From contig CM049320.1 of assembly GCA_026874595.1 (NCBI GenBank), positions 44,094,714-44,158,713 of the forward strand: DNA of 64,000 bases, written 5' to 3'. Positions within the stretch are counted from its first letter, which is position 1, and each line of letters starts with the position of its first letter. Below, piece after piece: positions 12,118 to 62,398 of the stretch. Source of the DNA: Sipunculus nudus (taxonomy: Eukaryota; Annelida; Sipuncula; Golfingiida; Sipunculidae). A program made the position numbers and the translations under genes. The notes beneath the pieces are model-generated. The model was not told where the DNA came from. It was given only the letters and a program-made list of their open reading frames with translations, and searched no databases.

Positions 12118-13795
12118 GATCCATCACCATCTAGTGATACAGTGTAACGTCATCACTGTCTAATGAAACAGTAGATAATGTCATCACTGTCTGATTACAC
12201 AGTATATAACATCATCACTGCCTGATAACACAGTAGATAATGTCATCACTGTCTGAAAACACAGTAGATAACGTCATCACTGTCTGATAACACAGTAGAT
12301 AATGTCATCACTGTCTGAAAACACAGTAGATAACGTCATCACTGTCTGATAACACAGTAGATAATGTCATCACTGTCTGAAAACACGGTAGATAAAGTCA
12401 TCACTGCCTGATAACACAGTAGATAATGTCATCACTGTCTGATAGTACAGCAGATAACAACATCACTGTCTGACAACACAGAAGATAACATCATCACTGC
12501 CTGAAACCACAGTAGATAATGTCATCACTGACTGATGACACAGTGGATAATGTCATTATGGTCTGATTACACAGTAGTTAACGTCATTACTGTCTGATGA
12601 CAAAGTAGATAAAATCACAGTCTGGTGACACAGTAGATAACGTCATCACAGTCTGGTGACACAGTGGGTAACGTCATCACTCTAATGACAGTAGGTAACG
12701 TCATCACTGTCTTGTTACACAGTGGATAACTTCATCACTCTAATGACACAGTAGATAACATTATCACTGTCAGGAGACACAGTAGATAACATCACTGTCT
12801 GGTGACACAGTGGATAACATCACTGTCTGGTGACACAGTTGATAATGTCATCACTGTCTGATGACACAGTGGATGTCATCACTGTCTGATGACAAAGTGG
12901 ACGTCATCACTGTCTGATGACACAGTGGATAAAGTCATTACTGTCTGATGCCCCATGGATTACATCATCACTGTCTGAACACACAGTGGATACATCACTG
13001 TCTGATGACACAGTGGATAACATCATTACTGTCTGGTGACATAGTGGGTAATGTCATCACTGTCTGATGACACAGTAGATAACGTCATCACTGTCTGATG
13101 ACACAGTGGATAACGTCATCACTCTAATGACACAGTAGATAACATCATCACTGTCTGGAGACACAGTAGATAACATCACTGTCTGGTGACACAGTAGATA
13201 ACGTCATCACTGTCTGTTGACACAGTGCATAACGTCATCACTCTAATGACACAGTAGATAATGTCATCCCTGTCTGGTGACACACTGGATAATGTCATCA
13301 CTGTCTGATGACACAGTGGATAACATCATTACTGTCTGATGACACAGTGGATAACTTCATTACTGTTAGGTGACACAGTGGATAACGTCATCACTCTAAT
13401 GACAGTAGTTAACGTCATCACTGTCTGGAGACACAGTAGATAACATCACTGTCTGGTGACACATTGGATAACGTCATCACTCTAATGACACAGTAGATAA
13501 CATCATAACTGTCTGGTGACACAGTAGATAACGTAATCACTGTCTGACGACACAGTGGAAGTCATCACTGTCTGATGACACAGTGGATAAAGTCATTACT
13601 GTCTGATGACACAGTGGGTAATGTCATTACTCTGATGACACAGTGGGTAACATCAATACTTTGATGACACAGTAGATAACATCATCTCTGTCTCGTTACA
13701 CAGTCATCACTGTCTGGTGACACAGTGGATTAAGTCATTACTGTCTAGCGACATAGTGGGTAATGTCATCAATGTCTGGTAACACAGTAGGTGAC
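12118..13795. repeat. 31-bp minisatellite (about 54 units)
   Basis: Tandem units of the form CAGTRGATAACGTCATCACT followed by GTCTGRTGACA. Many units are shortened by loss of GTCTGG or CAGTGGATAA parts. It lies downstream of the SLC25A11 stop codon. Frames in it are not coding. Confidence 0.95.
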
Positions 13796-14374
13796 ATTGA
13801 GTCTCACGCAGGTCTTAATCGAATCTACATCACCAGGTTTTTATATTCTCATATCTCTTTTTTAGAAGTTTACAAAGTTATTTGGAATATGCAAGTTAGA
13901 TTCAGTTTGAATGATGAGTTGAAATATACTTTCTATTTTTTTATTACTGATTAAATGATAACACTGGTTGGAGCATTCCATTTGACATTTTCTGTGGAAT
14001 TGTCTGTGTAAAAAAAGTTCTCTAGTTCTGCTGGTAATATCAGCAGGCTTAAGTATCTAAGATAAATGACAAATCTGTTGACTGAGCAAAGAACAAGAGC
14101 TATTGTTGTCACTCAATAAGTAAAAGTTTTAATTCTTGTTTTCTGAAGAGTGTACGACAATCACTTCACATTCACCAACATTTACATTAATGAGTCTTGC
14201 AGCAGTGCTGATTTCCGCTTAGTAACATTCAAGATGACCTGGCTCTTTCTCTTATCTATGACTAAACCAGTCTCCCAAGAACAAATTTTCCTAACTGCTG
14301 CTCACAAGATCATCAAACACCTACACAGCAAATCACAGTGCTACATCAATGATGTGTTGAGTGTTTGTGAGTGA
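13796..14374 (-). other. probable SLC25A11 3' UTR and flank
   Basis: Unique-looking AT-rich sequence between the stop codon and the 31-bp minisatellite. Small frames here have no recognisable product. The true 3' end is unknown. Confidence 0.4.
13940..13945 (-). other. possible polyadenylation signal of SLC25A11
   Basis: AATAAA on the minus strand, 430 nt beyond the stop codon, with AT-rich flanks and just before the large 31-bp minisatellite (ending at 13795). It is one of several AT-rich hexamers downstream, so the call is weak. Confidence 0.25.
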
Positions 14375-14551
14375 CTATAGACCACCCTTGATGTTATCTT
14401 TTCCTAGTACCACCTTGGCATACCACTTATTCATTTGTTCAAGGAAGATGAAGGTCAGGACAGTGTGTGGTCCAAGCCGGGCGTAATATGGAGTGAAACC
14501 TTTCCACAAACTGAAGAAGCCTTCCTTCCTTATGGTCTTGAAGAGCACATC
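14375..14551 (-). CDS. SLC25A11: SLC25A11 terminal coding exon I (h56, helix 6, stop)
   Basis: A 177-nt terminal exon, acceptor AATTTCAG, stop codon TAG at 14375-14377. It starts DVLFKTIRKEGFFSLWKGFT, then PYYARLGPHTVLTFIFLEQM and a short tail ending NIKGGL. This covers helix h56 (K-E-G...L-W-K-G) and transmembrane helix 6, including the R-L-G-P-H stretch with the arginine known to be substrate-critical in this carrier. With exons A-H it gives 288 residues. The tail after MNK is a little longer than the vertebrate one. Confidence 0.95.
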   Translation of the reverse strand, partial: DVLFKTIRKEGFFSLWKGFTPYYARLGPHTVLTFIFLEQMNKWYAKVVLGKDNIKGGL

Positions 14552-18035: not shown

Positions 18036-18087
18036 CAAAGCTCCTTTGTACTCCGGTACTCCATCAATGGTCTTCATGTTCTGGATT
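18036..18087 (-). CDS. SLC25A11: SLC25A11 coding exon H (matrix loop 3)
   Basis: A 52-nt exon, too short for a simple open-frame scan. Acceptor CATTGTAG, donor GTAAAT. It encodes IQNMKTIDGVPEYKGAL, the third matrix loop right after the K-T-R of exon G. It continues the split arginine codon (AG|A) and ends at a codon boundary for exon I. It was identified by similarity to the oxoglutarate carrier and by exact phase fit on both sides. Confidence 0.93.
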
Positions 18088-21863: not shown

Positions 21864-21963
21864 CTGGTTTTCACGATGTCCACAGGCATGGAGGCTGCTG
21901 TTGTAATCAGTCCACTGATCATACTGGCCACAAAGTGACAAAGTACATTATCACTGAAGTAAC
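21864..21963 (-). CDS. SLC25A11: SLC25A11 coding exon G (helix 5, third carrier motif)
   Basis: A 100-nt exon, acceptor TGTTTTATCAG, donor GTGAGA. It encodes a segment beginning GYFSDNVLCHFVASMISGL and ending ASMPVDIVKTR, i.e. transmembrane helix 5 with the third carrier signature (P-V-D-I-V-K). The acceptor and the first part of the exon are present three times in tandem at 69-bp spacing (acceptor edges 21963, 22032, 22101), and the reading frame stays open through all three. Use of an upstream acceptor would add 23 or 46 residues. I take the innermost acceptor as normal because it gives the family's length and sequence. Confidence 0.93.
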
Positions 21964-22103
21964 CTGATAAAACAACAAAATCACTGATCATACTGGCCAC
22001 AAAGTGACAAAGTACATTATGACTGAAGTAACCTGATAAAACAACAAAAATACTGATTATACTAGCCACAAAGTGATAAAGTACATTATGACTGAAGTTA
22101 TCT
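21895..22103 (-). repeat. three 69-bp tandem copies of the exon G 3' splice site
   Basis: Each unit holds a polypyrimidine tract, AG, and about 45 nt of exon G coding sequence. Acceptor edges are at 21963, 22032 and 22101. The two inner acceptors are identical (TTGTTTTATCAG|GTTAC). The outermost reads TTTCAG|ATAAC because an RC1 element has replaced its upstream part. 69 is a multiple of three and no stop interrupts the frame. Confidence 0.92.
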
Positions 22104-30946: not shown

Positions 30947-31037
30947 CTGTCCCCAGAACAAGCTGTTTAGCCTGTGAATATGACGCCAGTTGAGCCGCAT
31001 TGACCACAACCGCTCTGCCAACTGTAGGACCACAGCC
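30947..31037 (-). CDS. SLC25A11: SLC25A11 helix-4 exon, alternative version 2 (3'-proximal)
   Basis: A 91-nt exon, acceptor ATTGTAACAG, donor GTGATG (the same donor hexamer as version 1). It encodes GCGPTVGRAVVVNAAQLASY then SQAKQLVLGT plus one base. It is nearer the vertebrate carrier sequence (V-V-V, L-A-S-Y) than version 1. Between the two versions 15 of 30 codons differ only silently and four change the amino acid, which argues that both have been kept under protein-level selection. It joins exon E (codon boundary) and exon G (G|GT) exactly as version 1 does. A long 39-bp minisatellite (31279-32872) starts about 240 bp upstream of its acceptor. Confidence 0.92.
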
Positions 31038-31278
31038 CTGTTACAATAAAACACAACCAATACAGGGTTTAATAATCATCTGTTAGTATCAATCACATGA
31101 TTAATGTCGAAGTTCACAGGTCATGACTGTGTTAAAGAAAATGAATGGATTGAATTATATTGTGCTCCAAAACCGTTCACCAAACCCCCACCCCATCTGA
31201 ATGGATATAAAATATGGGAATTAAAGTTGCATGTACATGCAAACAAAGCTCTGACCTACAAAGAAATTGTACCATGCA

Positions 31279-32872
31279 AGCAGTGTGATGAACAAGGGAC
31301 CACTCACAGCATATACAGGCAGTGTGATGAACAGGGGACCACTCATAGCATATACAGGCAGTGTGATGAACAGGGGATCACTCATAGCGTATACAGGCAG
31401 TGTGATGAACAGGGGATCACTCATAGCATATACAGGCAGTGTGATGAACAGGGGACCACTCATAGCATATACAGGCAGTGTGATGAAGAGCAAACTATCC
31501 ATAACGATAAACAGGGAGCCACTCATAGCATATACAGGCAGTGTGATGAACAGGGGACCACTCATAGCATATACAGGCAGTGTGATGAACAGCAATCTAT
31601 CCATAGCGATAAACAGGTAACCGCTCATAGCATATACAGGCAGTGTGATGAACAGGGGACCACTCATAGCATATACAGGCAGTGTGATGAACAGGGGACC
31701 ACTCATAGCATATACAGGCAGTGTGATGAACAGCAATCTATCCACAGCGATAAACAGGGACCACTCATAGCTTATACAGGCAGTGTGATGAACAGGGGAT
31801 CACTCATAGCATATACAGCCAGTGTGATGAACAGGGGACCACTGATAGCATATACAGGCAGTGTGATGAACAGGGGATCACTCATAGCATATACAGGCAG
31901 TGTTAAGAACAGCAAACTATCCATAGCGATAAACAGGGACCACTCATAGCATATACAGCCAGTGTGATGAACAGGGGATCACTCATAGCATATACAGCCA
32001 GTGTGATGAACTGGGGACCACTGATAGCATATACAGGCAGTGTGATGAACAGGGGACCACTCATAGCATAAAGGCAGTGTGATGAACAGCAAACTATCCA
32101 TAGCCATAAATAGGGAACCACTCATAGCATATACAGGCAGTGTGATGAACAGGGTACCACACATAGCATACAGGCAGGGAGATGAACAGGGTACTACCCA
32201 AAGCATACAGGCAGTGTGATGAACAGGGGACCACCCATGGCATAAAGGCAGGGTAATGAACAGGGTACTACTCAAAGCATACAGCCAGTGTGATGTAAAG
32301 GGGACCATTCTTAGCATATACAGGCAGTGTGAAGAACAGGGGAATACTCATAGCATACAGGCAGTGTGATGAACAGTAAACTATCCATAGCGATAAACAG
32401 GGAACCACTCATAGCTTTTACAGGCAGTGTAATTAACAGGGTAGCACCCATAGCATACAGGCAGTGTGATGAACAGGGTACCAACTAAAGCATACAGGCA
32501 GTGTGATGAACCAGGGACCAACCACAGCATACAGGCAGTGTGATGAACAGGGTACTACCCAAAGCATACAGGCAGTGTGATGAACAGGGGACCACACATA
32601 GCATACAGGCAGTGTGATGAACAGGGTACTACCCAAAGCATAAGGCAGTGTGATGAACAGGGTACCCCCTATAGCATACAGGCAGTGTGATGAACAGGGT
32701 ACCACCTATAGCATACAGGCAGTGTGATGAACAGGGTACCACCTATAGCATACAGGCAGTGTGATGAACAGGGTACCACCTATAGCATACAGGCAGTGTG
32801 ATGAACAGGGTACCACCTACAGCATACAGGCAGTGTGATGAACAGGGTACTACACTTACAGCATGTGATGTA
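31279..32872. repeat. 39-bp minisatellite (about 40 units)
   Basis: Units of GCAGTGTGATGAACAGGGGA then CCACTCATAGCATATACAG, with a longer variant unit (AGCAAACTATCCATAGCGAT) interspersed as a higher-order pattern. The distal units (32440-32870) are a shorter 36-37-bp form. It lies in the intron between the two helix-4 exons. Because 39 is divisible by three, long frames are open on both strands. I regard them as artefacts. Confidence 0.95.
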
Positions 32873-33594
32873 TATTACAGTATGTAGTTTAAGCCTACTG
32901 TAACCATCAATCAAGCTGTTTACCCACTGTTTGAAGTTGTTTTAAATAAGGGTATACATATTGCATGCAGGCAGCAGATTGTATGTGCTCAGTTGCTCCA
33001 CCAAATTGTCTGAACATGTCTGTAATTTGTGAATGACTAAAGAGCAATGCTATTTTGAGGATTTTGGTGAAGGAACAGGTGAAGTCATCATGTCAATGAA
33101 TCTCTTAGAATAGTCCACCTCTTTAAGGGAAATTATTAATGGTCAGTTGGGGTGGTTAAATGGTTAATGATGATGTTTCTATAACGTTACAGTTTCTTTA
33201 CATCTATGAGAAATCCAGTGCACTACAGGTTGGGGAATTTTCTTTTAGGCACAATATTACTGGTAAGTTAGTTGCAGCACCTGTACTTTGTGGACAGACC
33301 TGTAACCAGGGGACAGCTGACTGGTGACTCTCCATGCCGTCCACCCAGCCTGACATAATGAGGGTGCAGGACATGGCAAAAACTATCAAGCTAAAAATTA
33401 CTAGAATGTCTCCTGGCACACCATAATAATCTCAACTGTTAATTCTATAAATATATACAATGTTAAGTCCTCAAATATCTGTAGTAAAGGATTTTCTATG
33501 GAGCTGATTTCAGATACTTTTCTTCTGAAGCAATTTTGTCAATTCATCTGCACTACAAGGATTTGGAGCTAATTAATGGTTATCCTAGATCTGA
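32873..33594. other. intron, nothing recognisable
   Basis: Single-copy-looking sequence between two minisatellites. No coding exon or repeat end is seen. Confidence 0.45.
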
Positions 33595-33785
33595 AGGTAA
33601 GGGCTGATTGACAGGTTCTGTAAGTTGGTAAGGGCTGATTGACAGGTTTTGTAAGTTGGTAAGGGCTGATTGACAGGTTCTGTAAGTTGGTAAGGGCTGA
33701 TTGACAGGTTTTGAAGTTGGTAAGGGCTGATTGACAGGTTCTGTAAGTTGGTAAGGGCTGATTGACAGGTTTTGTAAGTTGAAAG
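33595..33785. repeat. 31-bp minisatellite (6 units)
   Basis: Unit GGTAAGGGCTGATTGACAGG then TTCTGTAAGTT. It starts 94 bp beyond the donor of helix-4 exon version 1. On the gene strand each unit contains AACTTACAG, an acceptor-like string. Confidence 0.95.
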
Positions 33786-33878
33786 GAAGTTGTTATGGAA
33801 AGCAGTCAAGCAGGGAAATGGACACAGGGCAACATATGAACAAAAACATCAGGTGAAAAAAGGAATCCAGCACATCAC

Positions 33879-33969
33879 CTGTGTTGAGAACAATCTGTTT
33901 TGCCTGCGAGTATGATGACAATTGTGCTGCGTTGACTACAATGGCCCTTCCAACAGTTGGTCCACAGCC
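33879..33969 (-). CDS. SLC25A11: SLC25A11 helix-4 exon, alternative version 1 (5'-proximal)
   Basis: A 91-nt exon, acceptor AATTATCAG, donor GTGATG. It encodes GCGPTVGRAIVVNAAQLSSY then SQAKQIVLNT plus one base of the next glycine codon. This is the start of transmembrane helix 4 through the cytoplasmic gate motif (Y-S-Q-x-K). A second 91-nt exon with the same phases and 26 of 30 identical residues lies 2.8 kb downstream (30947-31037). Since 91 is not a multiple of three, including both would break the frame, so the two look mutually exclusive. Substitutions relative to version 2 are V to I, A to S, L to I and G to N. A 31-bp minisatellite lies 94 bp beyond the donor and a 39-bp minisatellite 116 bp upstream of the acceptor. 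Confidence 0.9.
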
Positions 33970-34084: not shown

Positions 34085-34512
34085 TGTGAAACATCATCTA
34101 CATGAAACAATACTTCCCATGTATGTGAAATATCTACATGAAACAATACTTCCTGTGTATGTGAAACATCATCTACATGAAACATTACTTCCTGTGTATG
34201 TGAAACATCATCTACATGAAACATTACTTCCTGTGTATGTAAAACATCATCTATATGAAAAATTACTTCCCATGTATGTGAAACATCATCTACATGAAAC
34301 ATTACTTCCTCTGTATGTAAAACATCATCTATATGAAAAATTACTTCCCATGTATGTGAAACATCATCTACATGAAACATTACATCCCGTGTATGTGAAA
34401 CATAGTCTACATGAAACATTTCTTCCAGTGTATGTGAAACATCATCTACATGAAACATTACATCCCTTGCATGTGAAACATCATCTATATGAAACATTTC
34501 TTCCAGTGTCTA
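34085..34512. repeat. 39-bp minisatellite (11 units)
   Basis: Unit GTGAAACATCATCTACATGA then AACATTACTTCCTGTGTAT. It lies 116 bp upstream (gene sense) of helix-4 exon version 1. It is open in frames on both strands for the same arithmetic reason as the other 39-bp array. Confidence 0.95.
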
Positions 34513-45336: not shown

Positions 45337-45427
45337 CCGCCACAACGTGGTGACTCCCTCCTCCCGTGTGATCCTGGTCAGGGCGTTGAACACTCCTTTG
45401 TAATTCCTTCTCTCTGCTGGTGGCAAC
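45337..45427 (-). CDS. SLC25A11: SLC25A11 coding exon E (matrix loop 2 and h34)
   Basis: A 91-nt exon, acceptor GTTAATCTAG, donor GTCAGT. It encodes LPPAERRNYKGVFNALTRIT followed by REEGVTTLWR, the matrix loop and amphipathic helix h34 of carrier repeat 2 (E-G...L-W-R). It ends at a codon boundary, so both versions of the helix-4 exon, which start with a full GGC codon, can follow it in frame. Confidence 0.95.
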
Positions 45428-47187: not shown

Positions 47188-47307
47188 CTCCCATCTGCTG
47201 TCATTCTAATGAGGGAGATCTCTGCTGGCGTACCAATAAATGCTCCAACACCACCGGCAACCATCCCTATACTGGCCTTCATGAAAAACCCAGGAGGCTT
47301 GTCTCCT
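47188..47307 (-). CDS. SLC25A11: SLC25A11 coding exon D (helix 3, second carrier motif)
   Basis: A 120-nt exon with acceptor TTTTTTCAG and donor GTAAAG. It encodes a helix-3 segment containing GMVAGGVGAFIGTPAEISLI and ending RMTADGR. The second repeat signature is P-A-E-x-x-L-I-R. Phase continues from exon C (AA|A) and into exon E (AG|G). The exon is tightly enclosed by minisatellites: a 44-bp array begins about 20 bp beyond its donor (46720-47165), and a 52-bp array that includes copies of its own acceptor runs upstream (47291-47765). Confidence 0.95.
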
Positions 47308-47765
47308 CTGAAAAAATAGGTATATTAGGTCATCCAACAGACCAGGTGGATTGTCTACTCTGAAAGATTAGGTAAAATATGTCATCAAACAGACCAGGTG
47401 GATCATCTCCTCTGAAAGATTAGGTAAAATATGTCATCAAACAGACCAGGTGGATTGTCTCCTCTGAAAGATTAGATAAAATATGTCATCAAACAGATCA
47501 GGTGGATCGTCTCCTCTGAAAAATTAGGTAAAATATGTCATCAAACAGACCAGGCGGATTGTCTCATCTGAAAGATTAGGTAAAATATGTCATCAAACAG
47601 ACCAGGTGGATTGTCTCCTCTGAAAAATTAGGTAAAATATGTCATCAAACAGACCAGGTGGATTGTCTCCTCTGAAAGATTAGGTAAAATATGTCATCAA
47701 ACAGACCAGGTGGATTGTCTCCTCTAAAAGGCAGGTTCAAAATGTCATCAAACAGACCAGGTGAC
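47291..47765 (-). repeat. 52-bp minisatellite made of the exon D 3' splice site
   Basis: Nine units at exact 52-bp steps (47291, 47343, 47395, 47447, 47499, 47551, 47603, 47655, 47707). The first is the real intron/exon D junction. On the gene strand each unit reads about TAATCTTTCAG|AGGAGACAA then CCACCTGG, i.e. pyrimidine tract, AG and the first 17-20 exonic bases. Eight decoy acceptors thus precede the real one. Confidence 0.95.
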
Positions 47766-48136: not shown

Positions 48137-48220
48137 TTTGAAAACTGCTCAAACAGCATAGTGTAGACCCCTAGACGTGTGGTGGTGTAGGTGGCTTGTC
48201 TCAGTAGCCCAGCAGATAAC
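48137..48220 (-). CDS. SLC25A11: SLC25A11 coding exon C (helix 2)
   Basis: An 84-nt exon with acceptor TTTGTCAG and donor GTAAGT. It encodes LSAGLLRQATYTTTRLGVYT followed by MLFEQFSK, which is transmembrane helix 2 of the first carrier repeat. The R-Q-A-T-Y-T-T-T-R-L-G stretch is diagnostic of the oxoglutarate carrier and contains the family's conserved substrate-site arginines and tyrosine. The acceptor with the first nine exonic bases is duplicated 70 bp further into the intron (48282-48310), leaving a decoy 3' splice site upstream of the real one. Confidence 0.94.
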
Positions 48221-48310
48221 CTGACAAACACAAAGTACAGAGGGGCCATCAGGCTGTACAGAATACATGATCATTAACCAGGCAGATAACCTGACAAACA
48301 CAAAGTACAG
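48212..48310 (-). repeat. duplicated exon C 3' splice site
   Basis: 29 identical bases at 48212-48240 and 48282-48310: TTTGTGTTTGTCAG|GTTAT on the gene strand plus a few exonic bases. The outer copy is a decoy acceptor. Confidence 0.95.
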
Positions 48311-54383: not shown

Positions 54384-54474
54384 CCTGTGTAGATGCCTCG
54401 CACACCTTCCTGTCTCAAGATGGAGCGTATCGCATGAAGGCTGGTCTTGTGCTCCTTTGCCTTGCCTCCTTCCC
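54384..54474 (-). CDS. SLC25A11: SLC25A11 coding exon B (matrix loop 1 and h12)
   Basis: A 91-nt exon with acceptor TTTTACAG and donor GTATGT. It joins exon A in frame and encodes a segment ending SILRQEGVRGIYTG, the amphipathic matrix helix h12 with the E-G...Y-x-G pattern typical of carrier repeat 1. Its first residues (EGGKAKEHKTS) match the position of the variable matrix loop of the oxoglutarate carrier. An opposite-strand frame across the same bases is a shadow. Flanks are ordinary intron; a truncated RC1 element starts 85 bp away at 54559. Confidence 0.93.
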
Positions 54475-62336: not shown

Positions 62337-62398
62337 CACTGAGCTGCATTCTGTTTTTCACCAAATCAAGGGGTTGTACGAAACATGTCGCTGCCATG
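62337..62398 (-). CDS. SLC25A11: SLC25A11 coding exon A (helix 1, first carrier motif)
   Basis: Exon of the mitochondrial 2-oxoglutarate/malate carrier, an inner-membrane antiporter that swaps matrix 2-oxoglutarate for cytosolic malate in the malate-aspartate shuttle. The 62-nt exon lies between an acceptor reading TACTTGCAG and the donor GTAAGT. It encodes MAATCFVQPLDLVKNRMQLSG, which holds the first mitochondrial-carrier signature (P-x-D-x-x-K, as PLDLVK). It starts with the last base of a codon, so at least one earlier exon exists. The known family protein is about 314 residues and roughly 25-30 residues are missing upstream. I found no match for them between 62399 and 64000. The 62-nt length and phases join in frame to the next exon. 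Confidence 0.93.

What the first reader, a model, noticed from the sequence alone, without database searches (positions are those of the whole stretch)
30947..33969. Mutually exclusive helix-4 exons in the mitochondrial oxoglutarate carrier
Two 91-nt exons with identical phases (0 in, 1 out), identical donor hexamers and good acceptors encode the same part of SLC25A11, from the start of helix 4 to the cytoplasmic gate motif Y-S-Q-x-K. Counting codon by codon, 15 of 30 differ silently and 4 change the residue (V/I, A/S, L/I, G/N), which suggests purifying selection on both. Since 91 is not a multiple of three, including both shifts the frame. The A/S change sits two residues before the gate tyrosine and could tune transport. 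I know of no described helix-4 isoforms for this carrier.
Basis: partly seen in the sequence, partly recalled or inferred. Interest (0 to 1): 0.85.

Follow-up and report, generated by a model that had tools for sequence, protein, structure and literature searches.

The report
Twin alternative exons in malate carrier
A mitochondrial malate/oxoglutarate transporter gene of what is probably a clam-like animal carries two old, well-kept versions of one exon, of which only one can be used at a time, so the animal very likely makes two slightly different transporters.

Summary
On the minus strand SLC25A11 (2-oxoglutarate/malate carrier) holds two tandem 91-nt exons, 7A (33969-33879) and 7B (31037-30947), for the same helix-4 segment. 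They share 69 of 91 bases and 26 of 30 residues; 15 codons differ silently, 4 by residue. dS is about 1.65 (near saturation), dN/dS about 0.06, and flanking introns show no homology. In simulation neither copy can have been neutral for half the time since duplication. An mRNA with either exon is open from exon 2 to the stop; with both, or neither, a stop falls 172 or 107 nt before the last junction. Mutually exclusive use is very likely, but no transcript was seen and no relative could be checked. Short-intron hindrance, minor-spliceosome incompatibility and a long AG-exclusion zone are not supported. The same genome carries a COQ2 exon pair like the published a/e pair: a positive control and a hint of anaerobic metabolism. 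No report of SLC25A11 twin exons was found in the searches made. Closest known: SLC25A3 exons 3A/3B. New member of a known kind; the gate-tuning idea is untested.

The parts
33879..33969 (-). Exon 7A (first in the transcript), 91 nt: GCGPTVGRAIVVNAAQLSSYSQAKQIVLNT + 1 nt
30947..31037 (-). Exon 7B (second), 91 nt: GCGPTVGRAVVVNAAQLASYSQAKQLVLGT + 1 nt
31038..33878 (-). Intron between 7A and 7B, 2841 nt, 62% minisatellite (31280-32853 and 33596-33781)
62337..62398 (-). Exon 2 of SLC25A11, 62 nt
54384..54474 (-). Exon 3, 91 nt
48137..48220 (-). Exon 4, 84 nt
47188..47307 (-). Exon 5, 120 nt
45337..45427 (-). Exon 6, 91 nt, donor CGG|GTCAGT in phase 0, joins 7A or 7B
21864..21963 (-). Exon 8, 100 nt, entered in phase 1 from 7A or 7B
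18036..18087 (-). Exon 9, 52 nt
14375..14551 (-). Exon 10, coding part with stop codon, 177 nt

Best explanation
7A and 7B are an old tandem exon duplication in SLC25A11, used as mutually exclusive exons. Each mRNA takes one of them, giving two carriers that differ at four residues of helix 4 and the loop after it. Shown from DNA: homology, matching phases and splice sites, open frame with either one, premature stop with both or neither, amino-acid-level constraint on both copies. Inferred: that both are spliced in vivo in different cells or conditions, that double-inclusion and skipping products are removed by nonsense-mediated decay, and that the choice is made by trans-acting factors or an RNA structure not found here, since the simple physical blocks are not supported.
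For: Single-copy gene: of 18 matches to the OGC protein in the genome 8 lie at this locus; the other 10 are 24-47% identical. Either exon gives 288 codons open from exon 2 to the stop in exon 10; both give a stop 172 nt, neither a stop 107 nt, before the last junction. dS 1.65, dN 0.092, ratio 0.056, bootstrap 95% range of the ratio 0.005-0.21. If one copy had been neutral half the time, 4 or fewer residue differences with no stop had probability 0.003 at total distance 0.8 and 0.000 (of 1500) at 1.2 and 1.65. Flanks score no better than shuffles (154 and 201 of 300 shuffles reach the observed score), so the exons alone were kept; silent sites are near saturation, so selection acts on the protein, which requires translation in this frame. 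R190, critical for OGC transport (PMC11475482, passage), is exon residue 8 (numbering by recalled human sequence) and is kept in both, as is YSQAK. The same search style finds a COQ2 exon pair matching a published mutually exclusive pair.
Against: No transcript seen; no other species examined. Only 30 codons: at the low end of the dS range (0.8) one copy could have been neutral for 30% of the time (probability 0.083). Four mostly conservative changes leave the purpose unclear. No docking stem was found near the exons (25 of 41 pairs shown).
Confidence: 0.88

Rival explanations
1. One copy is a decaying pseudo-exon left by an exon duplication.
For: No expression data; exon 4, 5 and 8 starts show that failed or partial local duplications occur in this gene.
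Against: dN/dS 0.056 and both splice sites intact; simulations exclude long neutrality of one copy; flanks have diverged beyond recognition while the exons have not.
Confidence: 0.05
2. The second exon is a poison exon: double inclusion triggers nonsense-mediated decay to lower carrier level, with no second protein isoform.
For: Double inclusion and double skipping do give premature stops 172 and 107 nt before the last junction.
Against: A poison exon needs no amino-acid conservation; here silent sites have turned over (16 of 22 changes at third positions) while residues are kept in both. It may still be a by-product of the exon pair.
Confidence: 0.04
3. The two exons belong to two different genes or to two haplotypes stacked by the assembly.
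For: Assembly of 153 contigs includes bacteria-like contigs, so it is not perfectly clean.
Against: Every other exon of the gene is single in the window and only one SLC25A11 locus is found in the genome; dS 1.65 is far beyond haplotype divergence.
Confidence: 0.03

Closest known systems
SLC25A3 (mitochondrial phosphate carrier) exons 3A/3B
   Same: Mutually exclusive homologous exons inside an SLC25 carrier, differing little in sequence; B ubiquitous, A mainly in striated muscle (PMC13252106, passages; PMC5740500, passages).
   Different: Another carrier and another segment (near the first helices, recalled). The phosphate carrier gene of this genome shows no second copy of any exon among the 5 matches at its locus.
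COQ2 exons 6a/6e (coq-2)
   Same: Mutually exclusive homologous internal exons in a mitochondrial membrane protein, in helminths, annelids and molluscs (PMC7434440, passages); a matching pair is present in this genome, e before a.
   Different: COQ2 copies differ much more (25 identical of 45 aligned columns) and switch ubiquinone to rhodoquinone synthesis; the SLC25A11 copies share 26 of 30 residues.
Oyster alternative oxidase, duplicated exon 10
   Same: Bivalve, mitochondrial inner membrane, tandem duplicated exon, the first copy being the more diverged one and dominant under air exposure (PMC5589949, abstract and passages).
   Different: Terminal exon chosen by an alternative 3' splice site, 15 of 41 residues differ; oyster-specific according to the authors.
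OGDH exons 4a/4b
   Same: Mutually exclusive exons in 2-oxoglutarate metabolism (PMC7969005, start of abstract in listing).
   Different: [quoted passage not shown] here the AG-free stretch before 7B is only 40 nt.

Membership tests
Mutually exclusive tandem-duplicated exon pair | Adjacent homologous exons of equal length and phase with working splice sites | tested here: met
Mutually exclusive tandem-duplicated exon pair | One, and only one, gives an open reading frame | tested here: met
   A or B open; A+B and none have premature stops
Mutually exclusive tandem-duplicated exon pair | Both copies kept by selection | tested here: met
   within one genome only
Mutually exclusive tandem-duplicated exon pair | Transcripts carry one or the other | not testable with these tools
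   no RNA data available
SLC25A11 (2-oxoglutarate/malate carrier) | Mitochondrial carrier fold by sequence, orthologous to animal OGC | tested here: met
SLC25A11 (2-oxoglutarate/malate carrier) | Critical residues R90, Y94, R98, R190, R288 (PMC11475482, passage) | tested here: inconclusive
   R190 equivalent (exon residue 8) kept in both copies; the other four were not checked one by one
MXE by short-intron steric hindrance | Intervening intron too short to splice | tested here: not met
   2841 nt
MXE by U2/U12 incompatibility | One exon flanked by minor-class splice sites | tested here: not met
   All introns around E6, 7A, 7B, E8 are GT-AG without the minor-class donor (consensus recalled)
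MXE by distant branch point | Long AG-free stretch before the second exon | tested here: not met
   AG-free stretch 28 nt before 7A and 40 nt before 7B; 15-76 nt over all ten acceptors
MXE by competing RNA structures | Docking/selector complementarity near the exons | tested here: inconclusive
   None of the 25 longest of 41 inverted repeats has an arm between 30,900 and 34,500; 16 were not shown and short pairings cannot be judged in one genome

The most novel reading that the evidence does not exclude
The exon switch is part of a splicing programme that re-tools mitochondria of a facultatively anaerobic mollusc: as COQ2 switches between a and e exons and oyster alternative oxidase between its exon-10 copies, SLC25A11 switches 7B to 7A to adapt malate/2-oxoglutarate exchange to hypoxia, when malate import feeds fumarate reduction.
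Probability: 0.15. Interest if true: 0.75.

Novelty: new member of a known kind. Interest (0 to 1): 0.5.

Why it matters
If both exons are used, SLC25A11 joins SLC25A3 as a mitochondrial carrier whose transport core is swapped by splicing, in a step (malate/2-oxoglutarate exchange) at the branch point of aerobic and anaerobic metabolism. The pair is a ready natural test of how four residue changes around helix 4 alter an SLC25 carrier, and with COQ2 it asks whether molluscs re-tool mitochondria by coordinated exon switching.

Tried and rejected
Weak-donor idea rejected: predicted U1 pairing of 7A and 7B donors (-9.2, -8.4 kcal/mol) lies inside the range of the nine donors, -5.3 to -11.1. Motif counts for five splicing-factor motifs near the exons gave small numbers without a clear pattern. 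No docking stem found. DNA searches of the genome with each exon found only that exon, not even its sister, so their silence about further copies means little. The search for relatives in bacterial/archaeal genome contigs gave one 28-residue, 43% match in a Chryseobacterium contig, not followed, and viral contigs gave none, so there is no cross-species evidence. Dating the duplication was dropped: 24.5 silent sites near saturation, bootstrap dS 0.7 to above 3. The idea that repeated acceptors are a special property of exon starts was not supported: 41 of 300 random window positions also have a copy of 30 or more of 38 bases within 1.5 kb. A COX1 search meant to identify the species through its mitochondrial genome found bacteria-like frames instead (one search was read in a wrong frame). 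Alternative oxidase was searched and its region fetched (L010) but not analysed. Scripts 12, 59 and 63 ended in errors (63 after printing the SLC25A11 rows) and were repeated in corrected form (16, 61, 64); one search translated in a wrong frame because of two bases added by mistake and was replaced.

Full report
The window lies at G000:C15:44094714-44158713 of a 1.43 Gb genome in 153 contigs. Reading splice sites by eye and checking them by script gives exons 2 to 10 inside the window; exon 1, MAKQEATTPKYIKFLFGGGAG with a GTGAGT donor, lies outside it near window coordinate 76440. Every exon is single except the helix-4 exon, which exists as 7A and 7B. Of 18 genome matches to the carrier protein, 8 lie at this locus and the other 10 are 24-47% identical, so the gene itself appears single-copy.

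They have 91 nt, phases 0 and 1, intact acceptors and donors. They share 69 of 91 bases; 11 codons are identical, 15 differ silently, 4 change the residue; differences fall 5, 1, 16 on codon positions 1, 2, 3. dN is 0.092 and dS 1.65, ratio 0.056, bootstrap range of the ratio 0.005 to 0.21 and of dS 0.72 to above 3 (pS capped). The alignment of the flanking introns is no better than shuffles, whereas the exons score 76 against at most 24.

To ask whether one copy could be idle, I simulated two lineages in which one is constrained throughout and the other neutral for a fraction of the time (1500 runs each). With total neutral distance 1.65, 20% neutrality gives 4 or fewer residue differences and no stop with probability 0.006; with 1.2, 30% gives 0.008; with 0.8, 30% gives 0.083 and 50% gives 0.003. 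So on any plausible distance both copies were constrained for more than half of their history. Since silent sites turned over, the constraint is on the protein; a protein is made from these exons only if each is spliced between exons 6 and 8.

Why exclusive: with 7A or 7B the frame is open to the stop in exon 10; with both, the frame shifts and stops 172 nt before the last junction; with neither, 107 nt before. By the usual rule of 50-55 nt (recalled) these would be targets of nonsense-mediated decay. This is an inference; no RNA was seen. The three simple physical blocks are not supported: the intervening intron is 2841 nt, all splice sites are of the major class, and no long AG-free stretch precedes 7B (40 nt). 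Paired intron elements were not found near the exons (25 of 41 pairs shown), which is inconclusive in one genome. 62% of the intervening intron is minisatellite.

What the difference could do: R190, one of five residues reported as critical for OGC transport (PMC11475482, passage), corresponds to exon residue 8 (recalled numbering) and is the same in both, as is the YSQAK motif. Aligned to human UCP1, residue 8 matches an arginine too. On an ideal helix, variable residues 10 and 18 lie 130 and 150 degrees from the mean direction of residues 8, 16 and 20, residue 26 70 degrees and residue 29 130 degrees; the last two may lie beyond the helix. Effects, if any, are more likely on helix packing, lipid contact or the outer loop than on substrate contact. 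Against the recalled human sequence 7A differs at 10 and 7B at 8 of 30 residues, so 7B is slightly more conservative.

Context. A positive control appeared in the same genome: COQ2 on C10 has two alternative exons for residues 138-182 of the human query, 25 identical of 45 aligned columns, the less human-like copy first (27 against 33 identities to human). Such a pair is reported to switch COQ2 between ubiquinone and rhodoquinone synthesis in helminths, annelids and molluscs (PMC7434440, passages). Oyster alternative oxidase also has a duplicated exon whose first copy is the diverged one and dominates under air exposure (PMC5589949, abstract and passages). In SLC25A11 too the first copy is, by two residues, the less human-like. 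A common hypoxia programme is therefore my boldest reading, at 0.15; nothing here tests it. As a contrast, the phosphate carrier gene of this genome shows no second copy of any exon among 5 matches at its locus, so the mammalian SLC25A3 type pair was not detected here.

Literature. Searches for mutually exclusive exons with the oxoglutarate carrier (2 papers), SLC25A11 (7 papers), mitochondrial carrier, malate carrier and bivalve and a five-term search (10 of 282 listed, none of the ten holding SLC25A11) gave no report of SLC25A11 twin exons. Of the 9 listings (8 different papers) I looked at passages of three: one lists SLC25A11 among genes with some alternative splicing event in human head and neck cancer, type not stated in the passage (PMC6545735); the others use 'mutually exclusive' in another sense. 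The other five were not opened. A survey of human MXEs does not name SLC25A11 in its main text but names SLC25A3 (PMC5740500); a paper on human tandem duplicated exons names neither (PMC9741552). A review of Drosophila mitochondrial carriers reports many splice isoforms, without the term mutually exclusive (PMC7504413). The library is open-access only, and gene models of other molluscs could not be consulted, so unannounced isoform annotations may exist.

Verdict: a real, old, selected exon pair; mutually exclusive splicing very likely (0.88); isoform function unknown.

Noticed in passing
window 47307-47723, minus strand: The acceptor and first ~18 nt of exon 5 are repeated in nine tandem units of 52 nt (the last is the real exon start), giving a ladder of near-identical 3' splice sites.
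   Followed up: partly
window 21963-22101, minus strand: The acceptor and first ~51 nt of exon 8 are repeated with period 69 (starts at 21963, 22032, 22101); upstream acceptors would add 23 or 46 residues in an open frame. The units at 21963 and 22032 hold AGGT at the junction, so a unit might itself be spliced out (inference).
   Followed up: partly
window 48220-48290, minus strand: The acceptor of exon 4 has a 34 of 38 copy 70 nt upstream, out of frame.
   Followed up: partly
L007+L008 (G000:C10), positions 12895-14302 of the joined piece, minus strand: A COQ2 exon start (SVFLGASS) is preceded by an array of copies of its own acceptor over 1.4 kb. In SLC25A11 3 of 10 acceptors and 0 of 9 donors have such copies, but 41 of 300 random window positions do too, so enrichment is not shown.
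   Followed up: partly
L008 and L007 (G000:C10): COQ2 with an e-like exon followed by an a-like exon, as published for rhodoquinone-making animals.
   Followed up: partly
G000 contigs C60-C90, C123, C138; L001: Bacteria-like cytochrome oxidase and UbiA frames, nearly identical over many contigs of the assembly, suggest symbiont or contaminant genomes.
   Followed up: no
window 31280-32853, 33596-33781, 34085-34509: Minisatellites fill most of the 7A-7B intron and lie about 100 nt from 7A on both sides; length variation could affect exon choice (inference).
   Followed up: no
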